A stretch of DNA of 64,000 nucleotides from Deltaproteobacteria bacterium GWB2_55_19 (GTDB taxonomy: Bacteria > Desulfobacterota > GWC2-55-46), in the NCBI GenBank assembly GCA_001797465.1, contig MGPQ01000005.1, positions 1 through 64,000 on the forward strand, written 5' to 3'. The notes below the pieces were generated by a model. That model searched no databases. It was not told the DNA's origin and saw nothing but the letters and a program-made list of their open reading frames with translations. A program made the translations under genes and the position numbers. Shown here piece after piece: positions 46,106 through 60,658 of this stretch. The stretch's first letter is position 1, and each line of letters opens with the position of its first letter.

Positions 46106-46181
46106 GGGGCAGTAGCTCAGTTGGGAGAGCGCAAGGCTGGCAGTCTTGAGGTCAGGGGTTCGATCCCCCTCTGCTCCACCA
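46106..46181 (+). tRNA. tRNA-Ala (anticodon GGC)
   Basis: The 76 bases fold as a cloverleaf. The acceptor GGGGCAG pairs with CTGCTCC and the D arm is GCTCAGTTGGGAGAGC. The anticodon stem CAAGG/TCTTG encloses loop CTGGCAG, giving anticodon GGC. The T arm is CAGGGGTTCGATCCCCCT and CCA is encoded. The recombinase gene starts 15 bases past its end, so its 3' half is the probable attachment site of the element. Confidence 0.95.
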
Positions 46182-46195
46182 AGAAAACCAAGGGG

Positions 46196-47299
46196 TTACG
46201 CGTTAAGCGTAGCCCCTTTTTCATTGGACTGTTGCAAAACTGTTGCAACTTTATCCAGCACCTCTACCCCATCCCTCAAGCTCTCCGGATAATGATGCGA
46301 ATACCTCTGCGTCATTTTGATATCCTTATGTCCCAGAAGCTTCGCTATCTTGTAGAGGTCTACTCCTGCCTGAGCAAGCCTTGTGGCAAAGGTATGTCTG
46401 AGGTCATGGAATCTGAAATCCTCTATCTTGGCGCGATCCACAACATTGTAAAACGCCCTAAGGAGATTCCTTCTTAAAATCTTCGAGCCAGCCTCGCTTG
46501 CAAAGACATAACTGTTTCTGATATGCCTTACCTTTGCCTTCTCCTTCAGAAGCTCGAAGGCTTTCTGGTTCAAGGGTATGGTTCTCTTTTCGCCGTTCTT
46601 GGACCTCACAACGGTGACGGTCTTTCTGAAAAGGTCAACATCAGGCCACTCAAGAGAAAGGATTTCATCCTGGCGCATCCCGGTGCTAAGGGCAAAGACA
46701 ACTATCTCCTGCAGCCAATAGCGCGGCTCTGTCTTGTTTTCCTTTAGCGTGGGATGAAGGACGCATTTCTCTATCAACTTCTTCTCCTCATTCACAGTCA
46801 GCCATCTGTCCCTTTCATTCCTGACCTTTTCCCTTGAGACCTTTTCAACAGGATTTGTCTGACACCACTCCCACTCCCTTACAGCCAGCTTGAAGGCCTG
46901 ATGCAATAGCGTGCGTCTATGGTTTAAAGAAGCTGCAGCAAGACCCTTTTCCCTGCATTTGGCCCTATAGGCCGATATGAGGCTTGGAGTAACATCCTTC
47001 AAACGCGTGTCCCCAAAAAACTCCTTCATATCCTTCACCATGCAGATATCGTTATTAGCGGTACCGGGTGCCTTATTGGGAGCAGAATGCTCTTTAATAT
47101 ATTTATCCAATAAGTCACCTAAGGTCTTATCTGCTGTGACAGGCTTCTCAAACCACTTGCCTTCAGCTATTTTGGTTACGACCTTTGCTTCAATCTTTTC
47201 GGCAAGTTTTCTATCTTTCACCTTTGTGGACCTTTGTATCCGTTCACCATTGTGGGTAAAACTCATCCACCAGACCCGGCCTCTCTTAAAAAGCCCCAT
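46196..47299 (-). CDS. Tyrosine recombinase (phage/ICE integrase)
   Basis: This 367-residue site-specific recombinase probably integrates the element at the tRNA. An N-terminal Arm-type DNA-binding part (MGLFKRGRVWWMSF) is followed by a SAM-like core-binding domain. The catalytic domain has Arg in STGMRQDEILSLEW, HDLRHTFATRL with His and Arg, LGHKDIKMTQRY and the nucleophilic Tyr in QRYSHH. The ATG before GLFKRG is chosen because GGAGGAGAAGG precedes it; an upstream in-frame ATG has no support. Its stop lies 15 bases from the tRNA, and its 5' end overlaps the excisionase-like gene. Confidence 0.93.
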   Translation of the reverse strand: MGLFKRGRVWWMSFTHNGERIQRSTKVKDRKLAEKIEAKVVTKIAEGKWFEKPVTADKTLGDLLDKYIKEHSAPNKAPGTANNDICMVKDMKEFFGDTRLKDVTPSLISAYRAKCREKGLAAASLNHRRTLLHQAFKLAVREWEWCQTNPVEKVSREKVRNERDRWLTVNEEKKLIEKCVLHPTLKENKTEPRYWLQEIVVFALSTGMRQDEILSLEWPDVDLFRKTVTVVRSKNGEKRTIPLNQKAFELLKEKAKVRHIRNSYVFASEAGSKILRRNLLRAFYNVVDRAKIEDFRFHDLRHTFATRLAQAGVDLYKIAKLLGHKDIKMTQRYSHHYPESLRDGVEVLDKVATVLQQSNEKGATLNA

Positions 47300-47636
47300 C
47301 CTTCTCCTCCTTTCCGAGGCCCTTGGTCGGTCTGACTTTCCGGTGATTAGAGTATACCTTTTTCCCTGTAGTTTCCTCAATAGCTTTCCGCATGATGACA
47401 TCTATATCAATCATGTCATTTTTGTCAAAACTTCTGATAATATCTTTGGCCCTTTTATCGGCGTCAACTATCTTCCTCTGGCCAATCTCCCATGTGTCTA
47501 TATCGGACTTTTTAAACCTGACCAGCCTGCCAAATTTGAAATAAGGGATTTCTCCCCTATTGGCTTTGTTATATAAGGTTTTCTTTTTAATCCCCAGATA
47601 TTCAGATAGTTCGTCAATATTTAAATACCCTTTCAT
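47286..47636 (-). CDS. Excisionase-like helix-turn-helix protein
   Basis: This 116-residue protein begins with a winged helix of the AlpA/excisionase type: NIDELSEYLGIKKKTLYNKA then GEIPYFKFGRLVRFKKSDID. The basic C-terminal half (VRPTKGLGKEEKDGAF) is unique. Such proteins bend DNA at attachment sites and direct the recombinase towards excision. Its end overlaps the recombinase start by 14 bases, so the two are translated from one message. The assignment rests on the domain and position. Confidence 0.85.
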   Translation of the reverse strand: MKGYLNIDELSEYLGIKKKTLYNKANRGEIPYFKFGRLVRFKKSDIDTWEIGQRKIVDADKRAKDIIRSFDKNDMIDIDVIMRKAIEETTGKKVYSNHRKVRPTKGLGKEEKDGAF

Positions 47637-53059: not shown

Positions 53060-53416
53060 TTAAATTTTGTCGTTCTCAGCATAGCACCAGAATACGTTTC
53101 CTTGTTGTAGCCAAAAATGACTCTTGCATCCGACTTTGCGCCACACTGAAGGATAAAGACTTACCGCGCCGTCATCATGCTCCGTAATGGTCCATCGCGG
53201 GCGCTGGTTGTGCATTAATCCCATTTGAAGGACTTCCCCGCACCCGCAAGGGCAAATCATCGCAGCATACCATAGATGATCATTTTCCCCCGCGACATAA
53301 ATCGTCCGTGGATGTAATTGCTCAGGCAAATTCTCTACCTTTATTGCTGTATAGAAAGCTGGTTTGCAGCAAAACCAATTCCAGATTTTATTTAAAACGT
53401 CCACTATCCACTTCAT
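53060..53416 (-). CDS. DUF6527-family zinc protein of the ubiquitin-like operon
   Basis: This 118-residue protein matches the DUF6527 pattern found next to prokaryotic ubiquitin-like/E1 genes: ICPCGCGEVLQMGL (cysteines 55, 57, 59), then PRWTITEHDDGAVSLYPSVW and GCKSHFWLQQGNVFWC (cysteines 97 and 111). These cysteines could hold a zinc ion. The N terminus is hydrophobic and Trp-rich (IVDVLNKIWNWFCCKPAF) and may contact a membrane or partner. Its start overlaps the E1 gene by four bases (ATGA). Its activity is unknown. Confidence 0.85.
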   Translation of the reverse strand: MKWIVDVLNKIWNWFCCKPAFYTAIKVENLPEQLHPRTIYVAGENDHLWYAAMICPCGCGEVLQMGLMHNQRPRWTITEHDDGAVSLYPSVWRKVGCKSHFWLQQGNVFWCYAENDKI

Positions 53417-54822
53417 GCTACTGATTCCTTCCTTTTGTCACTCAGTGCTGGCATATCCAGGAGTGGGATCACATCCCCACGCCCTAGGTGGTTGGATAGC
53501 AAAGCACAGGGCACATCATGTGCCGCATGTTCGTAAATACCATGGCTGAGACTTATAGTATGCCGATCGTACTCAGCATTAGGGTCTAGCCGATATGGGT
53601 GAAGGCGCGCCAGCAGCTCATTGACAGCTAATGCCGCATATACCATGTTTACAGACATCACGGCCGGTTTTTCTTCGTGAACACCCTCGATGTAGCCATC
53701 CCCCACCTGTTCTGCATATGCTACGGGATCGGTACTAAATAGTGCGGCGGCATGCGCCTGGTCGAGAGTATAAAGACCTCTGCTGAGTAGGCTGGATCCG
53801 CCAGGCTTGAGATAATGGACAGAACCACAAACCTGTTCAACGCCACCTGCGCCGTCTGCTATTAACCTTACCCCAATATCAAAATAGGGGAGGATGTAGA
53901 ACGACGATATCCTGTTTAACAGGTGGCGTCCGTCTATGCTGTCCATACATCCAAAAACTATATCACACGCGGTAACCGCCCTGACCGCATCTGGATCATA
54001 TAGGTCTGTCGCGAAAGTCTCCACCTTGGTCCCAAAGCCCATTTCGCCTATGGCCCGTGCCATTACATCAACCTTGAAGGCCCTGCATTTGGCATCTTCC
54101 ATTGTTGCCTGTGGAATTCGATTAAGATTCTTCTCCTCAATACGCTCTGGATCTATAAGAACTAAAGTGCCGACACAATTTCGGCTCAATAACTCAATGA
54201 CGAGGCTTCCCGTTCCGGAACAGCCCACTACACCGATTTTTAGGCGACGAAGTAATTGATAGGTCCCATCTCCAAAAGCTTGGGCTATACGGATACCGTA
54301 TTCAGGAATCGTATTGGAATCCAAATGCGAACAACCCCAGAACTTCAGATCATCTCCGACCCATTTTATCGAGGCAAGTGGCCGGAATTGGCCTTCCTGA
54401 TTTATGGTCCTCCCTATCAATTTGCCATCAGGCAACATAATTAAGCTTGCATGAGGGCTATTATCACCTAACCAAATGCCGAGATAAGAGAAAAACTCAC
54501 GGTCCGATTTATCGTCAGTACGTGAAAAAGAGGGATAACCATTCGGGTGACTATGAATTTTCATCACTGCCATACCGGTTCTTTCTGCTCGGGACAGCAA
54601 TTCCGGCATTTGGCTAGTCGACCAATTAACGCACTCAGGCGTACGCACTCCACAAGAATGGTAAGGTATGGTAACGATTTCCCTCACGAGCAGGCCTTGC
54701 TCTCCTTTTCCATGCCGGCGACCGCATAAGGCGAAAGCAACGGCTTCCTTCCCATCACCGGGAAAAAGATGCGCCGTAAGCTGATCGTGCTGCTTATCTG
54801 TTAGCGACAGAGTGACATTCAT
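53413..54822 (-). CDS. JAB protease-ThiF/E1 activating enzyme fusion
   Basis: This 469-residue protein joins two activities. Residues 1-150 form a JAB/JAMM metalloprotease with KIHSHPNGYPSFSRTDD (His90, His92, Ser100, Asp103), which in related systems removes ubiquitin-like tags. Residues 190-450 form an E1 adenylation domain: nucleotide loop VVGCSGTGSLVIELL, acidic/Arg block LIDPERIEEKNLNR and GCMDSIDGRHLLNR. Cys332 (VEQVCGSVH) is a candidate thioester cysteine. The later CxxC zinc motif common in ThiF proteins is replaced by serines (PGGSSLLSR). The ATG lies two bases after the E2 stop, with GGGAAAGG before it. Confidence 0.88.
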   Translation of the reverse strand: MNVTLSLTDKQHDQLTAHLFPGDGKEAVAFALCGRRHGKGEQGLLVREIVTIPYHSCGVRTPECVNWSTSQMPELLSRAERTGMAVMKIHSHPNGYPSFSRTDDKSDREFFSYLGIWLGDNSPHASLIMLPDGKLIGRTINQEGQFRPLASIKWVGDDLKFWGCSHLDSNTIPEYGIRIAQAFGDGTYQLLRRLKIGVVGCSGTGSLVIELLSRNCVGTLVLIDPERIEEKNLNRIPQATMEDAKCRAFKVDVMARAIGEMGFGTKVETFATDLYDPDAVRAVTACDIVFGCMDSIDGRHLLNRISSFYILPYFDIGVRLIADGAGGVEQVCGSVHYLKPGGSSLLSRGLYTLDQAHAAALFSTDPVAYAEQVGDGYIEGVHEEKPAVMSVNMVYAALAVNELLARLHPYRLDPNAEYDRHTISLSHGIYEHAAHDVPCALLSNHLGRGDVIPLLDMPALSDKRKESVA

Positions 54823-54824
54823 GA

Positions 54825-55538
54825 CTAAACCTTTCCCAGTTCTTGTTTTAACCATTCAGACACTAGGATCATGTGAGTTTCGAGGCTATCGATACCTGGT
54901 CGCCATGGGTTCTGTGGAGTTCTATGCCTGGACCAGCGCTGCCAATCCTTGCCGTCGAACCTGTCACTACATACGGCTTTGATTGCCCTACCATCCGATC
55001 TGACCAAGGCAGGGAAGAAATATACCATGTCAATTTGGGTATCGGGGTAAGTACGCTCGATCCTGACGTTCAAGTCCGCATACGTTGGTTCATAGCTATT
55101 GGGGAGTTTGTGACCGTAAATCACTACCCGCTGCACAGTACCTTCGTTAACTGCCTCCCAGGGAAGGCCAAGGCGTTCAAGAAAATTCAAGTCCTCTTCA
55201 GGCAACTCGAAATCCCGCCTAAGCTCCTGCTTTTGTTGTGCAGGTTCAGCGCCTTCCGTCTGGTCGAGCGGCAAAGTCATAAATCTTTCAACACCAGGGG
55301 TGCGGAAATCTGCAACCTGATCAAGCCCAACTATTCTGGTCTCTCCGCCCTTAAGCTTCTGATAGAGCGAAAAACGATCCGGGGGCTGCTTTCCGGCCAA
55401 AATCAAAAGTTGCCTACCAGTCATCTCGGGCACGGTCACATCATATTTCTTATTGTCGATACGTATACGATACTGTTCTGCGTGAAGAATTTCCTTGCCC
55501 TCTTTGGCATATTCCTCAATGTCGATAATCTTTTCCAT
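54825..55538 (-). CDS. Ubiquitin-like domain fused to an E2-like domain
   Basis: This 237-residue fusion joins a ubiquitin-like (Multi_ubiq-type) domain at about 20-95 (YRIRIDNKKYDVTVPEMTG, GLDQVADF) with a Prok-E2_E-like domain at about 110-230. The latter has the family pattern VCSDRFDGKDWQRWSRHR, Cys190 as candidate thioester cysteine, then NPWRPGIDSLETHM. Gly96 in LPLDQTEGAEP ends the ubiquitin-like part, so tail processing would need cleavage inside the fusion, perhaps by the JAB domain. Substrate unknown. It follows the 57-residue gene by 47 bases. Confidence 0.86.
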   Translation of the reverse strand: MEKIIDIEEYAKEGKEILHAEQYRIRIDNKKYDVTVPEMTGRQLLILAGKQPPDRFSLYQKLKGGETRIVGLDQVADFRTPGVERFMTLPLDQTEGAEPAQQKQELRRDFELPEEDLNFLERLGLPWEAVNEGTVQRVVIYGHKLPNSYEPTYADLNVRIERTYPDTQIDMVYFFPALVRSDGRAIKAVCSDRFDGKDWQRWSRHRTPQNPWRPGIDSLETHMILVSEWLKQELGKV

Positions 55539-55585
55539 TTTTCTTCTCCCTTATGGTTTTGAATTTAAGTTGCTATTTTGGGCGC

Positions 55586-55759
55586 TTAGTCTTCCTTGCG
55601 AACGCCCTTGAAAGGCTTGTTGTCGACTTTCTGATCCATAAACTTTCCAGTTTCGGCGTCACGCTTGATCCAGCGATCAACAACTGGATTGTAGACTTGG
55701 CTACGGTCTTTCACTGCACCTTGCCGATGTCCGTCACCATTAGGCGGATTCTTAGCCAT
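55586..55759 (-). CDS. 57-residue basic protein at the head of the ubiquitin-like operon
   Basis: This small gene starts with an ideal GGAGGTGATAT ribosome site. It reads MAKNPPNGDGHRQGAVKDRS, QVYNPVVDRWIKRDAETGKF, then MDQKVDNKPFKGVRKED. It is basic, with no hydrophobic helix, and I expect a small soluble protein. It is directly upstream of the ubiquitin-like/E2 fusion on the same strand and probably the first gene of that transcript. Lysines are plentiful, so it could be a conjugation substrate, an adaptor or an antitoxin-like partner; this is inference. I believe short proteins of this pattern (KRDxxTGxFMDQK...PFKGVRKE) recur widely but could not check. Confidence 0.8.
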   Translation of the reverse strand: MAKNPPNGDGHRQGAVKDRSQVYNPVVDRWIKRDAETGKFMDQKVDNKPFKGVRKED

Positions 55760-55808
55760 ATATCACCTCCTTTTTCAATATTGTTCAAATCAACTTCTAA
55801 CTTGTTTC

Positions 55809-55828
55809 CTAAACATTAAACATTAAAA
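55809..55828. promoter_or_regulatory. TAAACATT repeat upstream of the ubiquitin-like operon
   Basis: CTAAACATTAAACATTAAAA holds two direct copies of TAAACATT, about 50 bases upstream of the 57-residue gene. The same pattern occurs at the XRE promoter and at 59289, suggesting an operator. Confidence 0.6.
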
Positions 55829-55844
55829 GCAAAAAAAAGGATGC

Positions 55845-56534
55845 TCAATAAAGCGAACCTTGTTGAACTTTAGAATCGATGACAAGATCCAGATCAACCA
55901 AACGATAGCACATCGACTCAATTGAGACGTTAGAAAATCCAAATTGGATTATTTGCCTGGCAACGGTTCGCAAATTATAATTCTCTGCAACATTAAGCCT
56001 GTTCTTTTCCAAATCTTTAATCGGAAACAGTCCATGCTCTTGAATAGTCGATATAGAGGCTCGCACCATAGAACTCGGCATCAGAAGCATGGCCGCAAAC
56101 TGGTCCGCCTGCCATTCAGCCGGATCCTTTTTTTTACCAGATCGACATACTACAGCAGGTGTTGGCCGCATGTGCTCTTCATAAGCAAACAAAGGAAGAG
56201 TTACCTTATCCATCTCGTATATCGGTCGATGCATCCACCAATGTCCAATCTCATGGGCCATCGTAAAAGAAAGCCGCCCTTCTTTTTGTTCCAAAGAGGA
56301 GTCAATCCGTATAACCTTGTCTTCAAACCAGGTGGCCCCTAAAACATCTGGCATAGAAAGAAGTTCTTTGAGGTCAAAAAGTTGAAGATCTATTTTCAAA
56401 TAACCTTCTACTATATCGTCAATATCGATTGGAGGTACGAGCCTTACACCCTTCCAAGACTCATACTTGTGCAAAAGGTCTAAAGCCATACCTTCAATCT
56501 CTAATTTTTTCCAAAAAGGGACTTTTAAACTCAT
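55845..56534 (-). CDS. ImmA/IrrE-family metallopeptidase
   Basis: This 229-residue cytosolic protein has the zinc protease motif HEIGH within TMAHEIGHWWMHRP (about 88-101), and a glutamate in EWQADQFAAMLLMPSSMVRA, the typical third zinc ligand region. Proteins of this family cleave an XRE-type repressor to induce mobile elements (ImmA) or stress genes (IrrE). Its start overlaps the XRE gene by four bases. The natural target is that repressor, which would then control the ubiquitin-like operon or the element. Confidence 0.9.
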   Translation of the reverse strand: MSLKVPFWKKLEIEGMALDLLHKYESWKGVRLVPPIDIDDIVEGYLKIDLQLFDLKELLSMPDVLGATWFEDKVIRIDSSLEQKEGRLSFTMAHEIGHWWMHRPIYEMDKVTLPLFAYEEHMRPTPAVVCRSGKKKDPAEWQADQFAAMLLMPSSMVRASISTIQEHGLFPIKDLEKNRLNVAENYNLRTVARQIIQFGFSNVSIESMCYRLVDLDLVIDSKVQQGSLY

Positions 56535-56875
56535 TTCTTCGACTTTCTCTCTTCAAGCATCTTTAATAATTCGGTTGCAGAAACATTATCTTCTTTAGCT
56601 CTCCTTAAAAATGCCGGCATGCTTGAGTCGGATTTTATCAGATCAGAGACTTCTCCTGGTACTCGCCCTGCTAACCGCATTAAGTCGTCAAAGTTGTCAT
56701 TGAGCACTTCTGCCAGCTTTAAAATCTTCTCTTCGCTGGGAGGACTCGTTTCGGCATTGTTCTCTATTCGTGAAAGATAAGTTGCAGAAATGCCTACCTT
56801 GTTAGCTGTTTCGCGTAATCCAAGCCCACGCAAAGATCTCATCCTTTTCAAACGGGCTCCAAGTGTTTCGCCCAT
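56531..56875 (-). CDS. XRE-family helix-turn-helix repressor
   Basis: This 114-residue DNA-binding protein has an N-terminal helix-turn-helix (LKRMRSLRGLGLRETANKVG then ISATYLSRIENN, about 8-35) and a short C-terminal helical part (EDNVSATELLKMLEERKSKK). It should repress its own promoter, where the operator-like repeat overlaps the -35 region. It is translationally coupled to the ImmA-like protease, as in conjugative-element switches where the protease cleaves the repressor under DNA damage or quorum signals. That mode of control is inferred here. Confidence 0.92.
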   Translation of the reverse strand: MGETLGARLKRMRSLRGLGLRETANKVGISATYLSRIENNAETSPPSEEKILKLAEVLNDNFDDLMRLAGRVPGEVSDLIKSDSSMPAFLRRAKEDNVSATELLKMLEERKSKK

Positions 56876-56894
56876 AATTCCTCCTTATTTCTAT

Positions 56895-56923
56895 TTTATA
56901 GCATACTACGACGCGCCTGTCAA
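56895..56923 (-). promoter_or_regulatory. Promoter of the XRE-ImmA genes
   Basis: On the minus strand TTGACA and TATAAA are separated by 17 bases. TGTTTAGTGTTTAG abuts the -35 hexamer, so a bound repressor would block polymerase. Confidence 0.75.
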
Positions 56924-56939
56924 CTAAACACTAAACATT
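56924..56939. promoter_or_regulatory. TAAACATT-type operator at the XRE promoter
   Basis: CTAAACACTAAACATT is a direct repeat with one mismatch, matching the motif at 55809 and at 59289. It lies against the -35 box of the XRE gene. Confidence 0.65.
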
Positions 56940-57308
56940 CCCCGTGTTGGACAAAGAGGCGTGCATCTTATTTGATCCTCGTCCTAACCCCAAATTGCGG
57001 GCAGCTACTTATATCCCACATTTCAAGAAACCAACAAATAATGCCCATTCGGGACTCGTAGATACAGGCATAAAGGCTCGTAACCCGGCGTATAAGCCTG
57101 TAGAAAGGCGAGTGCCAAGGAGACCCTGACCGATTCGACTGTCCTTCTCTTTGACGTGCCATGAACAAAATTTGCGTTTACAGTCGGTCTCCGGGTTAAG
57201 GCACCTCTGAGTCTACATCATCACCTCCTTTTCCTCCACAGGATTTTCATAGACATACTGCTGATAGAGCTTCAGGCCGTCTAAGAATGTCTGAAGCGGG
57301 GTTCACCC

Positions 57309-57995
57309 CTATCTGTTTCCATTGCCACAGCGCCTATCTTTCATCATAAGATATCCTTTCAGGTCGTTCAAATCGTGAAAGGCCGTAGCTACATTCCTTA
57401 TCTCCAAAGACGTCATATCCGACCGTCCAACACAAATGATCTTCTTCCCCAAGTTCTTGAGATGGTTGAACACAACCACGAAATCGGAATCCCCGCCGAA
57501 AAACACCAGCTCGTCATATCTGTCTATCTCGGTCAGAAGCCTGAAAGCTATCTCCACGTCCATGTTGCCCTTTATCTTATCCGGCAGCACCTTAACTTCC
57601 TTGTCGATGACGTTATATCCGCTGTATATCAGTGCCTTCCTGAAGGCGTGATACCTGCTGATCTTTTCAACCTCCGACGCCGGTGGATACGCGGTGAAAA
57701 AAAAGGCCCCGCTCATCTTCTTCCGGCTGCCGAAATAACGATATGCCTTCTCCCAGTCTATGAACCAACCGTTATTCATCTGCGCGTAAAACATATTCCC
57801 GCCATCAACAAACAACGCAACCCTTTCCTCAGCTACATGACCCTTACGCTTCTCACCATCATGTTTCATGGCGTCATGAGCTTCTTCCTTACATGAAGAA
57901 CATGTTCCTGACCTTAAATCCTCCCACCTTCCGCAAACCCTACAGATACCATTAGAATCCTTAGCCGCTCCACCTCTGTGAGCCTTAAGTCTCAT
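57309..57995 (-). CDS. NYN/LabA-type endoribonuclease-like protein with N-terminal zinc ribbon
   Basis: This 228-residue protein has an N-terminal zinc ribbon (GICRVCGRWEDLRSGTCSSC: CxxC, then CxxC) and a NYN/PIN-like nuclease domain (about 60-220). The acidic residues of the fold appear in VALFVDGGNMFYAQ, GNMDVEIAFRLL and FFGGDSDFVVVFNHL, which hold the catalytic metal. NYN proteins cut RNA or are toxin-like; LabA relatives also act in clock and signalling. The added zinc ribbon may guide target binding. It is a single gene left of a small paralogue pair. Confidence 0.88.
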   Translation of the reverse strand: MRLKAHRGGAAKDSNGICRVCGRWEDLRSGTCSSCKEEAHDAMKHDGEKRKGHVAEERVALFVDGGNMFYAQMNNGWFIDWEKAYRYFGSRKKMSGAFFFTAYPPASEVEKISRYHAFRKALIYSGYNVIDKEVKVLPDKIKGNMDVEIAFRLLTEIDRYDELVFFGGDSDFVVVFNHLKNLGKKIICVGRSDMTSLEIRNVATAFHDLNDLKGYLMMKDRRCGNGNR

Positions 57996-58153: not shown

Positions 58154-58513
58154 TCAAATCTTCTTCAGCTCCGGATGCCTTCTCAGCCGCGCCCTTACCC
58201 TTAATTTCACCTTCTGTGCTACCCTTACTAGAAACGGCAATGTCTTCGGATTCATTCTAAACCGGCGCCTGCACAAGGAAGCAACCTCCCGTGGGGTCTT
58301 TCTCGGGTCCCTACCAAACTTTTTCTCCAGCCACGCCTCCAAATCCTTCCACACGAGATCGGGATAGGTCATCTCACAGACCAACTGCATCCACTGAAGG
58401 CGCCTGGCTTCACTGAGTTCGGCAAGAAGACCATCGATAAAAAGCCTTTGATGGCGGGCATCAACACAATTGAGCATCCTGGCGGCCGTGATTGCGCATT
58501 TTTCCTGATTCAT
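58154..58513 (-). CDS. Unknown 119-residue protein, paralogue B of a tandem pair
   Basis: The chosen ATG follows GGAGGACACT and gives MNQEKCAITAARMLNCVD, aligned with the neighbour's MNQKKYVATGIKLVKGLD. The two share HQRLFIDGLL/QQRLFMKTLT, RLQWMQLVCEMTYPD/RLQWLEWTCHTLYPE, W.DLEAWLEKKF/W.KIDRWMEGMF and an arginine-rich end (KVKLRVRARLRRHPE). This looks like a small nucleic-acid-binding helical protein. There is no catalytic motif. It is a duplicated gene whose function is unknown. Confidence 0.65.
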   Translation of the reverse strand: MNQEKCAITAARMLNCVDARHQRLFIDGLLAELSEARRLQWMQLVCEMTYPDLVWKDLEAWLEKKFGRDPRKTPREVASLCRRRFRMNPKTLPFLVRVAQKVKLRVRARLRRHPELKKI

Positions 58514-58571
58514 AGTGTCCTCCTTCCCGCTAAAAGCACCAAACGCACCAAACCGCTGAAGGGAGCAGTCA

Positions 58572-58955
58572 TCAACCCTGCCAATCGTCTTCCTGGCCGG
58601 CATATCCCTCAGGGTGCATCCGCATACGCATCAAAACCCTGCATTTTACCCTCCGCGCCATCTTCATCAGGAACGGATACATCTTTAAGTTCGTATGGTA
58701 GTAATTGACACACATTGAAACTATCATCCCGGGGGTTCTCTTCATGTCGCTTCTAAACATCCCTTCCATCCAGCGGTCTATCTTCATCCATCTTGTCTCC
58801 GGGTAAAGGGTATGACAGGTCCACTCAAGCCATTGAAGGCGCTTTTTATCGCAGAAACCCTTAGTAAGAGTCTTCATGAAAAGACGCTGCTGAGAGTAAT
58901 CGTCGAGGCCTTTGACCAACTTGATACCGGTTGCGACATACTTTTTCTGATTCAT
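58572..58955 (-). CDS. Unknown 127-residue protein, paralogue A of a tandem pair
   Basis: It is the upstream member of the pair and shares the features above (MNQKKYVATGIKLVKGLDDY, RLQWLEWTCHTLYPETRW). It ends in a basic stretch (CRVLMRMRMHPEGYAG) and a short acidic tail. A 20-base palindrome lies 65-84 bases upstream of its start and could be its operator. The two proteins are about one-third identical by eye, so they diverged some time ago. No domain name is recognised. Confidence 0.65.
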   Translation of the reverse strand: MNQKKYVATGIKLVKGLDDYSQQRLFMKTLTKGFCDKKRLQWLEWTCHTLYPETRWMKIDRWMEGMFRSDMKRTPGMIVSMCVNYYHTNLKMYPFLMKMARRVKCRVLMRMRMHPEGYAGQEDDWQG

Positions 58956-59632: not shown

Positions 59633-60658
59633 ATGAATATGACGGCAAGAATTTCCTATATCAATCAATTCAAAAGGATGGAAAAGGATATGCAGAAGAT
59701 AGTAGGCATCGACTTGGGATTTGGTTTCTGCAAGGTATTCTCTGACAACGGAAGGCACATATTTCCTTCAATCGCGGGCCCTTGTAACGAAGAGGTCCTG
59801 AGAGTTTCAGGGGTGCGTAACCCGGCTTATGAACACGAGACCGTCTTTCTCGACAACAAGAAGTTCCTGGTCGGGAACAGCGCTGCCAGATACTCCGAAA
59901 GGGTCTACCAGGCAAGGGACAAGGACTGGATAGACTCGTTTACCTACCGCTGCCTGCTGCACCACGCCCTAAGGCTCGCCGGAGTCGACAACTCGTCCCT
60001 AACTCCCCAGGAAACGGTTATTGTAACCGGACTGCCGGTCACCCATTACCGCTCCTGCAGGCCCAAGCTCATAGACCTCGTAAAGAGCATGGCCCATCCT
60101 GACGTATCCGTCAAAGTGACCCTGCAACCCCTCGGCAGCTATTTCGATCACCTCCTCTGCGATGACGGGGGCATACAAGACATGGAACTCGTACACAACC
60201 GGGTCGGGGTCATAGACATCGGTTTCTACACGAGCGATTTTATAACAGTTGAGTCCCTCGAACTCGTGAAGAACCTCTTGGAGACGCGAGAAGGTGGGAT
60301 GTCCTCGGTCTACCAGGAGATAGCCAGGGACATATTCAACAGCCACGGCATCAGGAAGGAGACCTACGAAGTCGAGCGCGTAGTCGCCGACGGCTACGTA
60401 AAGGTGTACGGCGAGAAGAAGAGGATCGCCGACATTGTACGGCCGAGGTTCGAGAGGTTCGCCAGGGAGATCGAATCAACGGCAAGGATATTGTGGAAAG
60501 ACGGGGCCGATATCGACCGGATTCTTGTAACAGGCGGGGGAAGCGAAGACTTGAAGGATTATCTTGAATTCTACAAGCACGCTACTTTCATGTCTGGCGG
60601 CCAGTTCGCCAACGTAAGAGGTTACGTGAAATTCGCCAGGAGCCTAAAGGAGGTATAA
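59633..60658 (+). CDS. Actin-like plasmid-segregation protein (ParM/StbA family)
   Basis: This 341-residue ATPase has the actin fold motifs: phosphate 1 IVGIDLGFGFCKVF, phosphate 2 VGVIDIGFYTSDFI and the adenosine motif ILVTGGGSEDL. It should form filaments that push DNA copies apart, or help hold an excised element. Other in-frame ATG codons at 59678 and 59690 follow AAAAGG-like sites and may be the true start, because homology begins at KIVGIDLG. A small gene two bases downstream is its probable DNA-binding partner. Confidence 0.85.
   Translation: MNMTARISYINQFKRMEKDMQKIVGIDLGFGFCKVFSDNGRHIFPSIAGPCNEEVLRVSGVRNPAYEHETVFLDNKKFLVGNSAARYSERVYQARDKDWIDSFTYRCLLHHALRLAGVDNSSLTPQETVIVTGLPVTHYRSCRPKLIDLVKSMAHPDVSVKVTLQPLGSYFDHLLCDDGGIQDMELVHNRVGVIDIGFYTSDFITVESLELVKNLLETREGGMSSVYQEIARDIFNSHGIRKETYEVERVVADGYVKVYGEKKRIADIVRPRFERFAREIESTARILWKDGADIDRILVTGGGSEDLKDYLEFYKHATFMSGGQFANVRGYVKFARSLKEV

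What the first reader, a model, noticed from the sequence alone, without database searches (positions are those of the whole stretch)
53060..56940. Compact ubiquitin-like conjugation module under its own repressor/protease switch on a mobile element
Seen: six minus-strand genes in a tight row: XRE, ImmA/IrrE protease, a 57-residue protein, a ubiquitin-like/E2 fusion, a JAB/E1 fusion and a DUF6527 zinc protein. Gene overlaps or spacings are 4, 85, 47, 2 and 4 bases. Known: ubiquitin-like, E2, E1 and JAB families cluster in bacteria, and some such clusters (Bil, CBASS-type) act against phages. Inference: activation, transfer and removal are packed into two fusion proteins, and the repressor/protease pair would make it inducible. 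The ubiquitin-like domain being fused to the E2 raises the question of how its tail is freed.
Basis: partly seen in the sequence, partly recalled or inferred. Interest (0 to 1): 0.85.

Follow-up and report, generated by a model that had tools for sequence, protein, structure and literature searches.

The report
Mobile bacterial ubiquitin-like (Bub) operon
A mobile stretch of a bacterial chromosome carries a known kind of ubiquitin-like tagging operon (Bub) behind a damage-sensing switch; the fresh part is that the switch comes with a tiny, widely conserved companion gene and also occurs, in a related bacterium, in front of a completely different anti-phage system.

Summary
The six genes are real. 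The core (ubiquitin-like/E2 fusion, JAB-E1 fusion, DUF6527) is a Bub operon, Iyer et al. 2006 type 6e. Its proteins match the solved Citrobacter BubA, BubB and BubCD. Ubl-E2 fusions in this class were reported in 2006, and CapH+CapP switches beside Bub operons have been published, so the headline is not new. (1) The E2 is not a classical one: no cysteine is conserved in 29 relatives, while W202-S203-R204-H205 is invariant. (2) The tail question has a likely answer: split relatives end exactly at ...TEG, fused ones carry that glycine (G96) in a disordered linker, and the invariant JAMM site of the partner enzyme is the obvious cutter. What looks unreported: the 57-residue protein (PADLOC PDC-S38) belongs to the switch. 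A genus-mate has the same promoter-CapH-CapP-S38 block, homologous up to the S38 stop codon, in front of a CBASS operon. S38 also lies next to CapW, CapK+CapS and HTH-ImmA controllers, before CBASS, YegP and AbiTii, and at the end of other Bub operons. Two matching 20-bp candidate operators, the only ones in the genome, flank capHP.

The parts
56918..56937 (-). candidate CapH operator O1, TGTTTAGTGTTTAGTTGACA, overlapping the -35 box (TTGACA, 17 nt, TATAAA) of the capH promoter
   Evidence: same motif as O2; no other site in the 2.6-Mb genome at up to 1 mismatch; 19/20 conserved in genus-mate L038. Motif defined after the fact; binding untested
56531..56875 (-). CapH-like HTH repressor (114 aa)
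   Evidence: HTH_19; capH 1e-10; 83% identical to L038 CapH
55845..56534 (-). CapP-like ImmA/IrrE metalloprotease (229 aa), HEIGH at 94-98
   Evidence: Peptidase_M78; capP 4e-19; weak match to solved CapP 7T5T
55803..55822 (-). candidate CapH operator O2, TGTTTAATGTTTAGGAAACA, between capP and the small gene
   Evidence: 20/20 identical in L038
55586..55759 (-). 57-aa protein S38 (PADLOC PDC-S38, phrog_12550), unknown function
   Evidence: homologs on plasmids, genomes and phage contigs; contexts
54825..55538 (-). BubA-BubB fusion: Ubl (23-89), tail ending T94-E95-G96, disordered linker 93-104, cysteine-less E2-like domain (112-232)
53413..54855 (-). BubCD: JAB/JAMM protease (E37, H101, H103, S111, D114) fused to E1 (R246, K261, D298, C303); probable start ATG at 54822
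   Evidence: (9EA4, E=5e-78 over 16-474)
53060..53416 (-). DUF6527 predicted zinc protein, C55-x3-C59-x37-C97-x2-H100
46196..47401 (-). tyrosine integrase of the element, beside tRNA-Ala 46106-46181

Best explanation
It is a Bub (type 6e) ubiquitin-like conjugation operon with a CapH+CapP switch. Shown by sequence: gene content, domain homology to solved Bub proteins, intact JAMM and E1 sites, lack of a conserved E2 cysteine, and homology of the promoter-CapH-CapP-S38 block to one in a related genome up to the S38 stop codon. Inferred, by analogy with studied CapHP and Bub proteins: at rest CapH holds the operators before capH and before S38. DNA damage or phage-derived single-stranded DNA activates CapP, which cuts CapH and releases S38 and the Bub genes. 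The BubA-BubB precursor is cut after G96 by the JAB domain of BubCD, freeing a ubiquitin-like protein with a C-terminal glycine and a separate BubB. The E1 domain adenylates that glycine, and BubB passes it to targets without a cysteine thioester, with S203/H205 as candidate active residues. JAB also removes conjugates. DUF6527 probably helps as a zinc-binding adaptor. S38 is an accessory of the damage-controlled cassette with unknown biochemistry, not a conjugation enzyme.
For: Bub identity. Switch: plus recurrent HTH-ImmA neighbours and PMC13373217. Tail: six split Ubls end exactly ...TEG*, four run a few residues beyond it, and fused proteins carry an aligned Gly there; G96 invariant in A1; residues 93-104 are the only segment with pLDDT below 50; the solved construct BubA 155-229 ends at the position of G229 in a closely related natural 362-aa BubA-BubB protein. 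No conserved E2 Cys, WSRH 29/29. JAMM residues 29/29. Cassette: window 55586-56937 aligns to L038 at 74% DNA identity and stops at the S38 stop codon; L038 cargo is SAVED-HNH, CD-NTase and E2. Operators.
Against: No experiment here. Bub has no demonstrated phage protection (PMC13373217). CapP similarity to the solved CapP is weak, and ImmA/HTH pairs also control ICE transfer. The operator motif was defined after seeing it. O2 has no clear promoter behind it. S38 is absent from most Bub operons examined and is also found on phage contigs without any controller, so its tie to the switch is a tendency, not a rule. The S203/H205 assignment rests on conservation alone.
Confidence: 0.8

Rival explanations
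1. The fusion stays uncut: the Ubl works in cis as a non-covalent activator or self-assembly domain of the E2-like protein, and no free Ubl is made.
For: Solved multi-ubiquitin relatives form filaments (9D59 and 9D5B titles), so Ubl assembly may matter in itself; the E2-like domain lacks a cysteine.
Against: Split homologs end precisely at the glycine, the glycine is kept in the fused ones, and an intact JAMM protease is encoded next door.
Confidence: 0.08
2. The HTH/ImmA pair is the element's own ImmR/ImmA-type transfer switch and only happens to lie beside the Bub genes.
For: Integrase and partition-type genes lie in the same element; ImmR/ImmA pairs do govern some ICEs (title and abstract of PMC10233336).
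Against: In L038 the same block precedes CBASS with no other shared DNA; the next closest CapHP in the phylum sample (L115) precedes another Multi_ubiq/E1/DUF6527 operon; the two operator copies flank capHP and occur nowhere else in the genome; PADLOC assigns capH/capP.
Confidence: 0.1
3. The operon serves general DNA-damage or stress response rather than phage defence.
For: Bub not shown to defend (PMC13373217); S38 and a WYL/CapW-type controller also sit before YegP.
Against: Swap with CBASS behind the same switch; plasmid and defence-island settings.
Confidence: 0.35
4. S38 is an unrelated passenger (a phage or plasmid small gene) caught between CapP and BubA.
For: Found on phage contigs and in an arsenic-gene setting; absent beside most Bub operons.
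Against: Next to all of CapHP, CapKS, CapW and HTH-ImmA controllers in several phyla; kept with CapHP across a cargo swap; last gene of two further Bub operons (L086, L097); 47/57 identity to the L038 copy.
Confidence: 0.2

Closest known systems
Citrobacter Bub proteins (PDB 9EA4, 9EA5, 9EA8, 9EAE, 9EAV; Ye et al. 2026, not readable here)
   Same: BubCD alignable over nearly its whole length (5e-78); BubB and BubA domains both matched; a near relative is likewise one fused BubA-BubB protein with Gly at the junction
   Different: Citrobacter BubA has further N-terminal Ubl domains, the window has one; related Enterobacterales plasmid loci use CapK+CapS, not CapHP; no S38 there
Iyer et al. 2006 operon type 6e (PMC1779556)
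   Same: Ubl, cysteine-less E2/RWD-like domain (sometimes fused), JAB-E1, zinc protein with paired Cys/His
   Different: 6e was described without the HTH-ImmA switch and without S38
CapH+CapP controllers (CBASS; PMC13373217 for Bub)
   Same: HTH repressor gene overlapping an ImmA-like protease gene in front of an immune-type operon
   Different: CapP here is shorter and only weakly similar to the solved CapP; block includes S38 and two candidate operators
PADLOC PDC-S38 / phrog_12550
   Same: full-length match of the 57-aa protein
   Different: listed as a candidate or unknown; no function and no controller association found in the papers searched
Bil operons
   Same: Ubl, E1, E2 and JAB gene set
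   Different: Bil E2 uses a catalytic Cys in a CEHH motif (PMC11354881), absent here; operon layout differs

Membership tests
Bub / Iyer type 6e | Multi_ubiq-type Ubl | tested here: met
   2e-15; BubA 9EA8
Bub / Iyer type 6e | Prok-E2_E domain without catalytic Cys | tested here: met
Bub / Iyer type 6e | JAB fused to the N-terminus of the E1, both sites intact | tested here: met
Bub / Iyer type 6e | metal-binding partner with paired Cys/His signature | tested here: met
   (C-x3-C-x37-C-x2-H; Iyer print the last pair as H-x2-C)
Bub / Iyer type 6e | conjugation of the Ubl to proteins | not testable with these tools
   needs biochemistry
CapH+CapP controller | HTH repressor and ImmA-like protease in one transcription unit before an immune-type operon | tested here: met
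CapH+CapP controller | sequence match to solved CapP | tested here: inconclusive
   E=0.007, partial
CapH+CapP controller | ssDNA-activated cleavage of CapH | not testable with these tools
   none
Bil | E2 with conserved catalytic Cys | tested here: not met
PDC-S38 | full-length profile match | tested here: met
   1e-32 over 1-56

The most novel reading that the evidence does not exclude
S38 is an unrecognised general component of damage-controlled bacterial immune operons: a highly conserved protein of about 57 residues made at once when any of several unrelated DNA-damage controllers (CapHP, CapW, CapKS, HTH-ImmA fusions) is released. Controller plus S38 move as a cassette in front of interchangeable cargos (Bub, CBASS, AbiTii, YegP).
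Probability: 0.5. Interest if true: 0.68.

Novelty: new member of a known kind. Interest (0 to 1): 0.5.

Why it matters
Bub operons have known chemistry partners but no proven role. A related genome with the same switch in front of CBASS is circumstantial evidence that cells use Bub as an immune cargo, and offers a matched pair for testing. The G96 site gives a one-residue test of how a fused ubiquitin-like protein is freed. S38, unstudied as far as the searches here show, highly conserved across phyla and found beside several kinds of damage controllers, could point to a shared step of bacterial immunity.

Tried and rejected
PF14461 (Prok-E2_B): none in the genome. Phages: no BubAB relative, none in viral contigs. 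PDB search of S38: nothing; its model is poor (pLDDT 62) and Foldseek gave no significant match, so no fold is claimed. Att repeats for the element's right end: none of 15 bases within the first 160 kb of the contig. Papers naming DUF6527, PDC-S38 or the S38 peptide: none. Ye et al. 2026 and Gong et al. 2025 are not in the library, so their results enter only through PDB titles and citing papers; I recall non-cysteine oxyester chemistry for Bub but could not verify it. Reading the E2 as catalytic through window C190 was rejected: its alignment column is mixed. Viral-contig search with CapP: none.

Full report
Observation. The six minus-strand genes are present at the stated coordinates with the stated spacings. 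The 2-base gap between the Ubl-E2 gene and the JAB-E1 gene assumes the E1 begins at the ATG at 54822, which has a gggaaagg stretch before it. Profiles place every domain well above cut-off, so this is not a chance reading.

What the core is. The fusion protein matches Citrobacter BubB (9EAV/9EAE, 8e-20) and Citrobacter BubA (9EA8, 4e-6); the JAB-E1 protein matches Citrobacter BubCD from residue 16 to 474 (9EA4, 5e-78). The AlphaFold model of the fusion finds the same entries (9EAE, E=8e-10, TM 0.88 on the target; 9EA8, TM 0.82). The set also fits operon type 6e of Iyer et al. 2006 (PMC1779556): one to three Ubl domains, in some species fused to an inactive E2/RWD-like domain, JAB fused to the N-terminus of the E1, and a zinc protein. 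It is therefore a Bub operon, and the Ubl-E2 fusion is not new.

The E2-like domain. In 29 E2 sequences (28 from the window and its operon relatives plus the solved BubB) no cysteine column is conserved. The window's C190 column is mixed. W202, S203, R204, H205, W212, P176, Y164 and M171 are kept in all 29. Classical thioester transfer is thus unlikely; S203 and H205 are candidates only.

Freeing the tail. Among split relatives, six Ubl genes end exactly at ...TEG (L002, L007, L018, L020, L086, L092), and four run on by a few residues after TEG (L005, L083, L084, L094). Fused relatives show a glycine at the aligned place just before the E2-like domain: DQTEG-LGTD, DQREG-EALR, DVNNG-EESP, and in the window DQTEG-AEPA. 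G96 is invariant in the seven-sequence alignment. In the model, residues 93-104 are the only segment with pLDDT under 50. In a near relative of the solved Citrobacter protein (L095, 362 aa, naturally fused), residue 229 is that glycine, and the published construct is BubA 155-229. The JAMM residues E37, H101, H103, S111 and D114 are invariant in 29. Cleavage after G96 by the partner enzyme is the natural inference; it was not tested here.

The switch. PADLOC scores the HTH and ImmA proteins as capH and capP; CapP carries HEIGH at 94-98. HTH-ImmA pairs recur beside homologous operons, usually divergent. PMC13373217 already reports CapW or CapH+CapP beside 219 of 544 Bub operons and CapK+CapS beside others. 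Related Enterobacterales loci L021 and L095 carry two genes that fit the CapK+CapS pair by size, order and annotation; this identification is mine. The same paper says Bub has not been shown to protect against phage.

A swapped cargo. The fusion was not found in any of 96 relatives other than the window's own genome, and in 395 genomes sampled from the phylum its E2 family gave only two weaker hits besides the window. One genus-mate, G397, has no Prok-E2_E hit but carries the same CapH (83%), CapP (71%) and S38 (82%) in the same order. The DNA alignment runs from window 56937 to 55586 at 74% identity and stops at the S38 stop codon; nothing else in the 64-kb window aligns to that 19-kb stretch. 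Behind it in G397 lie a SAVED-HNH effector, a CD-NTase and an E2, that is, a short type II CBASS. The next closest CapH-CapP found in the phylum sample (L115, CapP 48%) lies before Multi_ubiq, a DUF6791-ThiF E1 and DUF6527, without S38.

Operators. A 20-base motif, TGTTTANTGTTTAGNNNACA, occurs twice in the window, over the -35 box of a good capH promoter (TTGACA, 17 nt, TATAAA) and between capP and S38. It occurs nowhere else in the 2.6-Mb genome at up to one mismatch. Both copies are kept in L038. The motif was defined by inspection, so the shuffle count is only a guide.

The 57-residue protein. S38 is PADLOC PDC-S38 and phrog_12550. It is found on 75 plasmid records, in 11 of 297 genomes of the phylum sample and on 11 viral contigs. 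R12, G14, K32, R33, K44 and F50 are invariant in 23 copies. Its neighbours include CapHP then CBASS (L038), CapK+CapS then CBASS (L096; matched to the L021 pair), WYL/CapW-type controllers before CBASS, YegP and a nucleotidyltransferase-like gene (L098, L100, L014), HTH-ImmA fusions (L055, L101, the latter before AbiTii), and the end of two further Bub operons (L086, L097). It also occurs in an arsenic-gene setting (L013) and on phage contigs with no controller detected. The loci were not a random sample, so this is a pattern to be counted properly, not a statistic.

Verdict. An ordinary but clean Bub operon by type, with a likely resolution of the tail question and a correction on the E2. The cassette with S38 is the part worth following.

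Noticed in passing
window 55586-55759; L038, L096, L098, L100, L101, L086, L097: The small protein S38 recurs beside CapHP, CapKS, CapW and HTH-ImmA controllers and at the end of other Bub operons.
   Followed up: partly
L115 4144-7168: CapH-CapP before Multi_ubiq, DUF6791-ThiF and DUF6527 with no E2 gene seen: a possible E2-less version.
   Followed up: partly
L053 6083-8847: CapH, S38, a diverged Prok-E2_E-like protein (below cut-off) and a ThiF protein in a row; no Ubl gene seen.
   Followed up: partly
L092 3923-8795: A Bub operon directly followed by nucleotidyltransferase and SAVED genes (CBASS-like) on a Nostoc plasmid.
   Followed up: no
L085 6437-8690; L094 812-3607: S8 peptidase and AAA ATPase gene pair beside Bub operons in two rhizobial plasmids.
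   Followed up: no
window 58154-58955: Two neighbouring, similar-looking short proteins (149 and 127 aa) with no significant Pfam family.
   Followed up: no
window 57309-57995: NYN-domain protein with a cysteine-rich N-terminus directly upstream of the switch.
   Followed up: no
window 46106-47401: tRNA-Ala with adjacent integrase; lower G+C continues past the window, right end of the element not found.
   Followed up: partly
window 59633-60658: ParM/actin-like protein on the element, suggesting a partition system.
   Followed up: no
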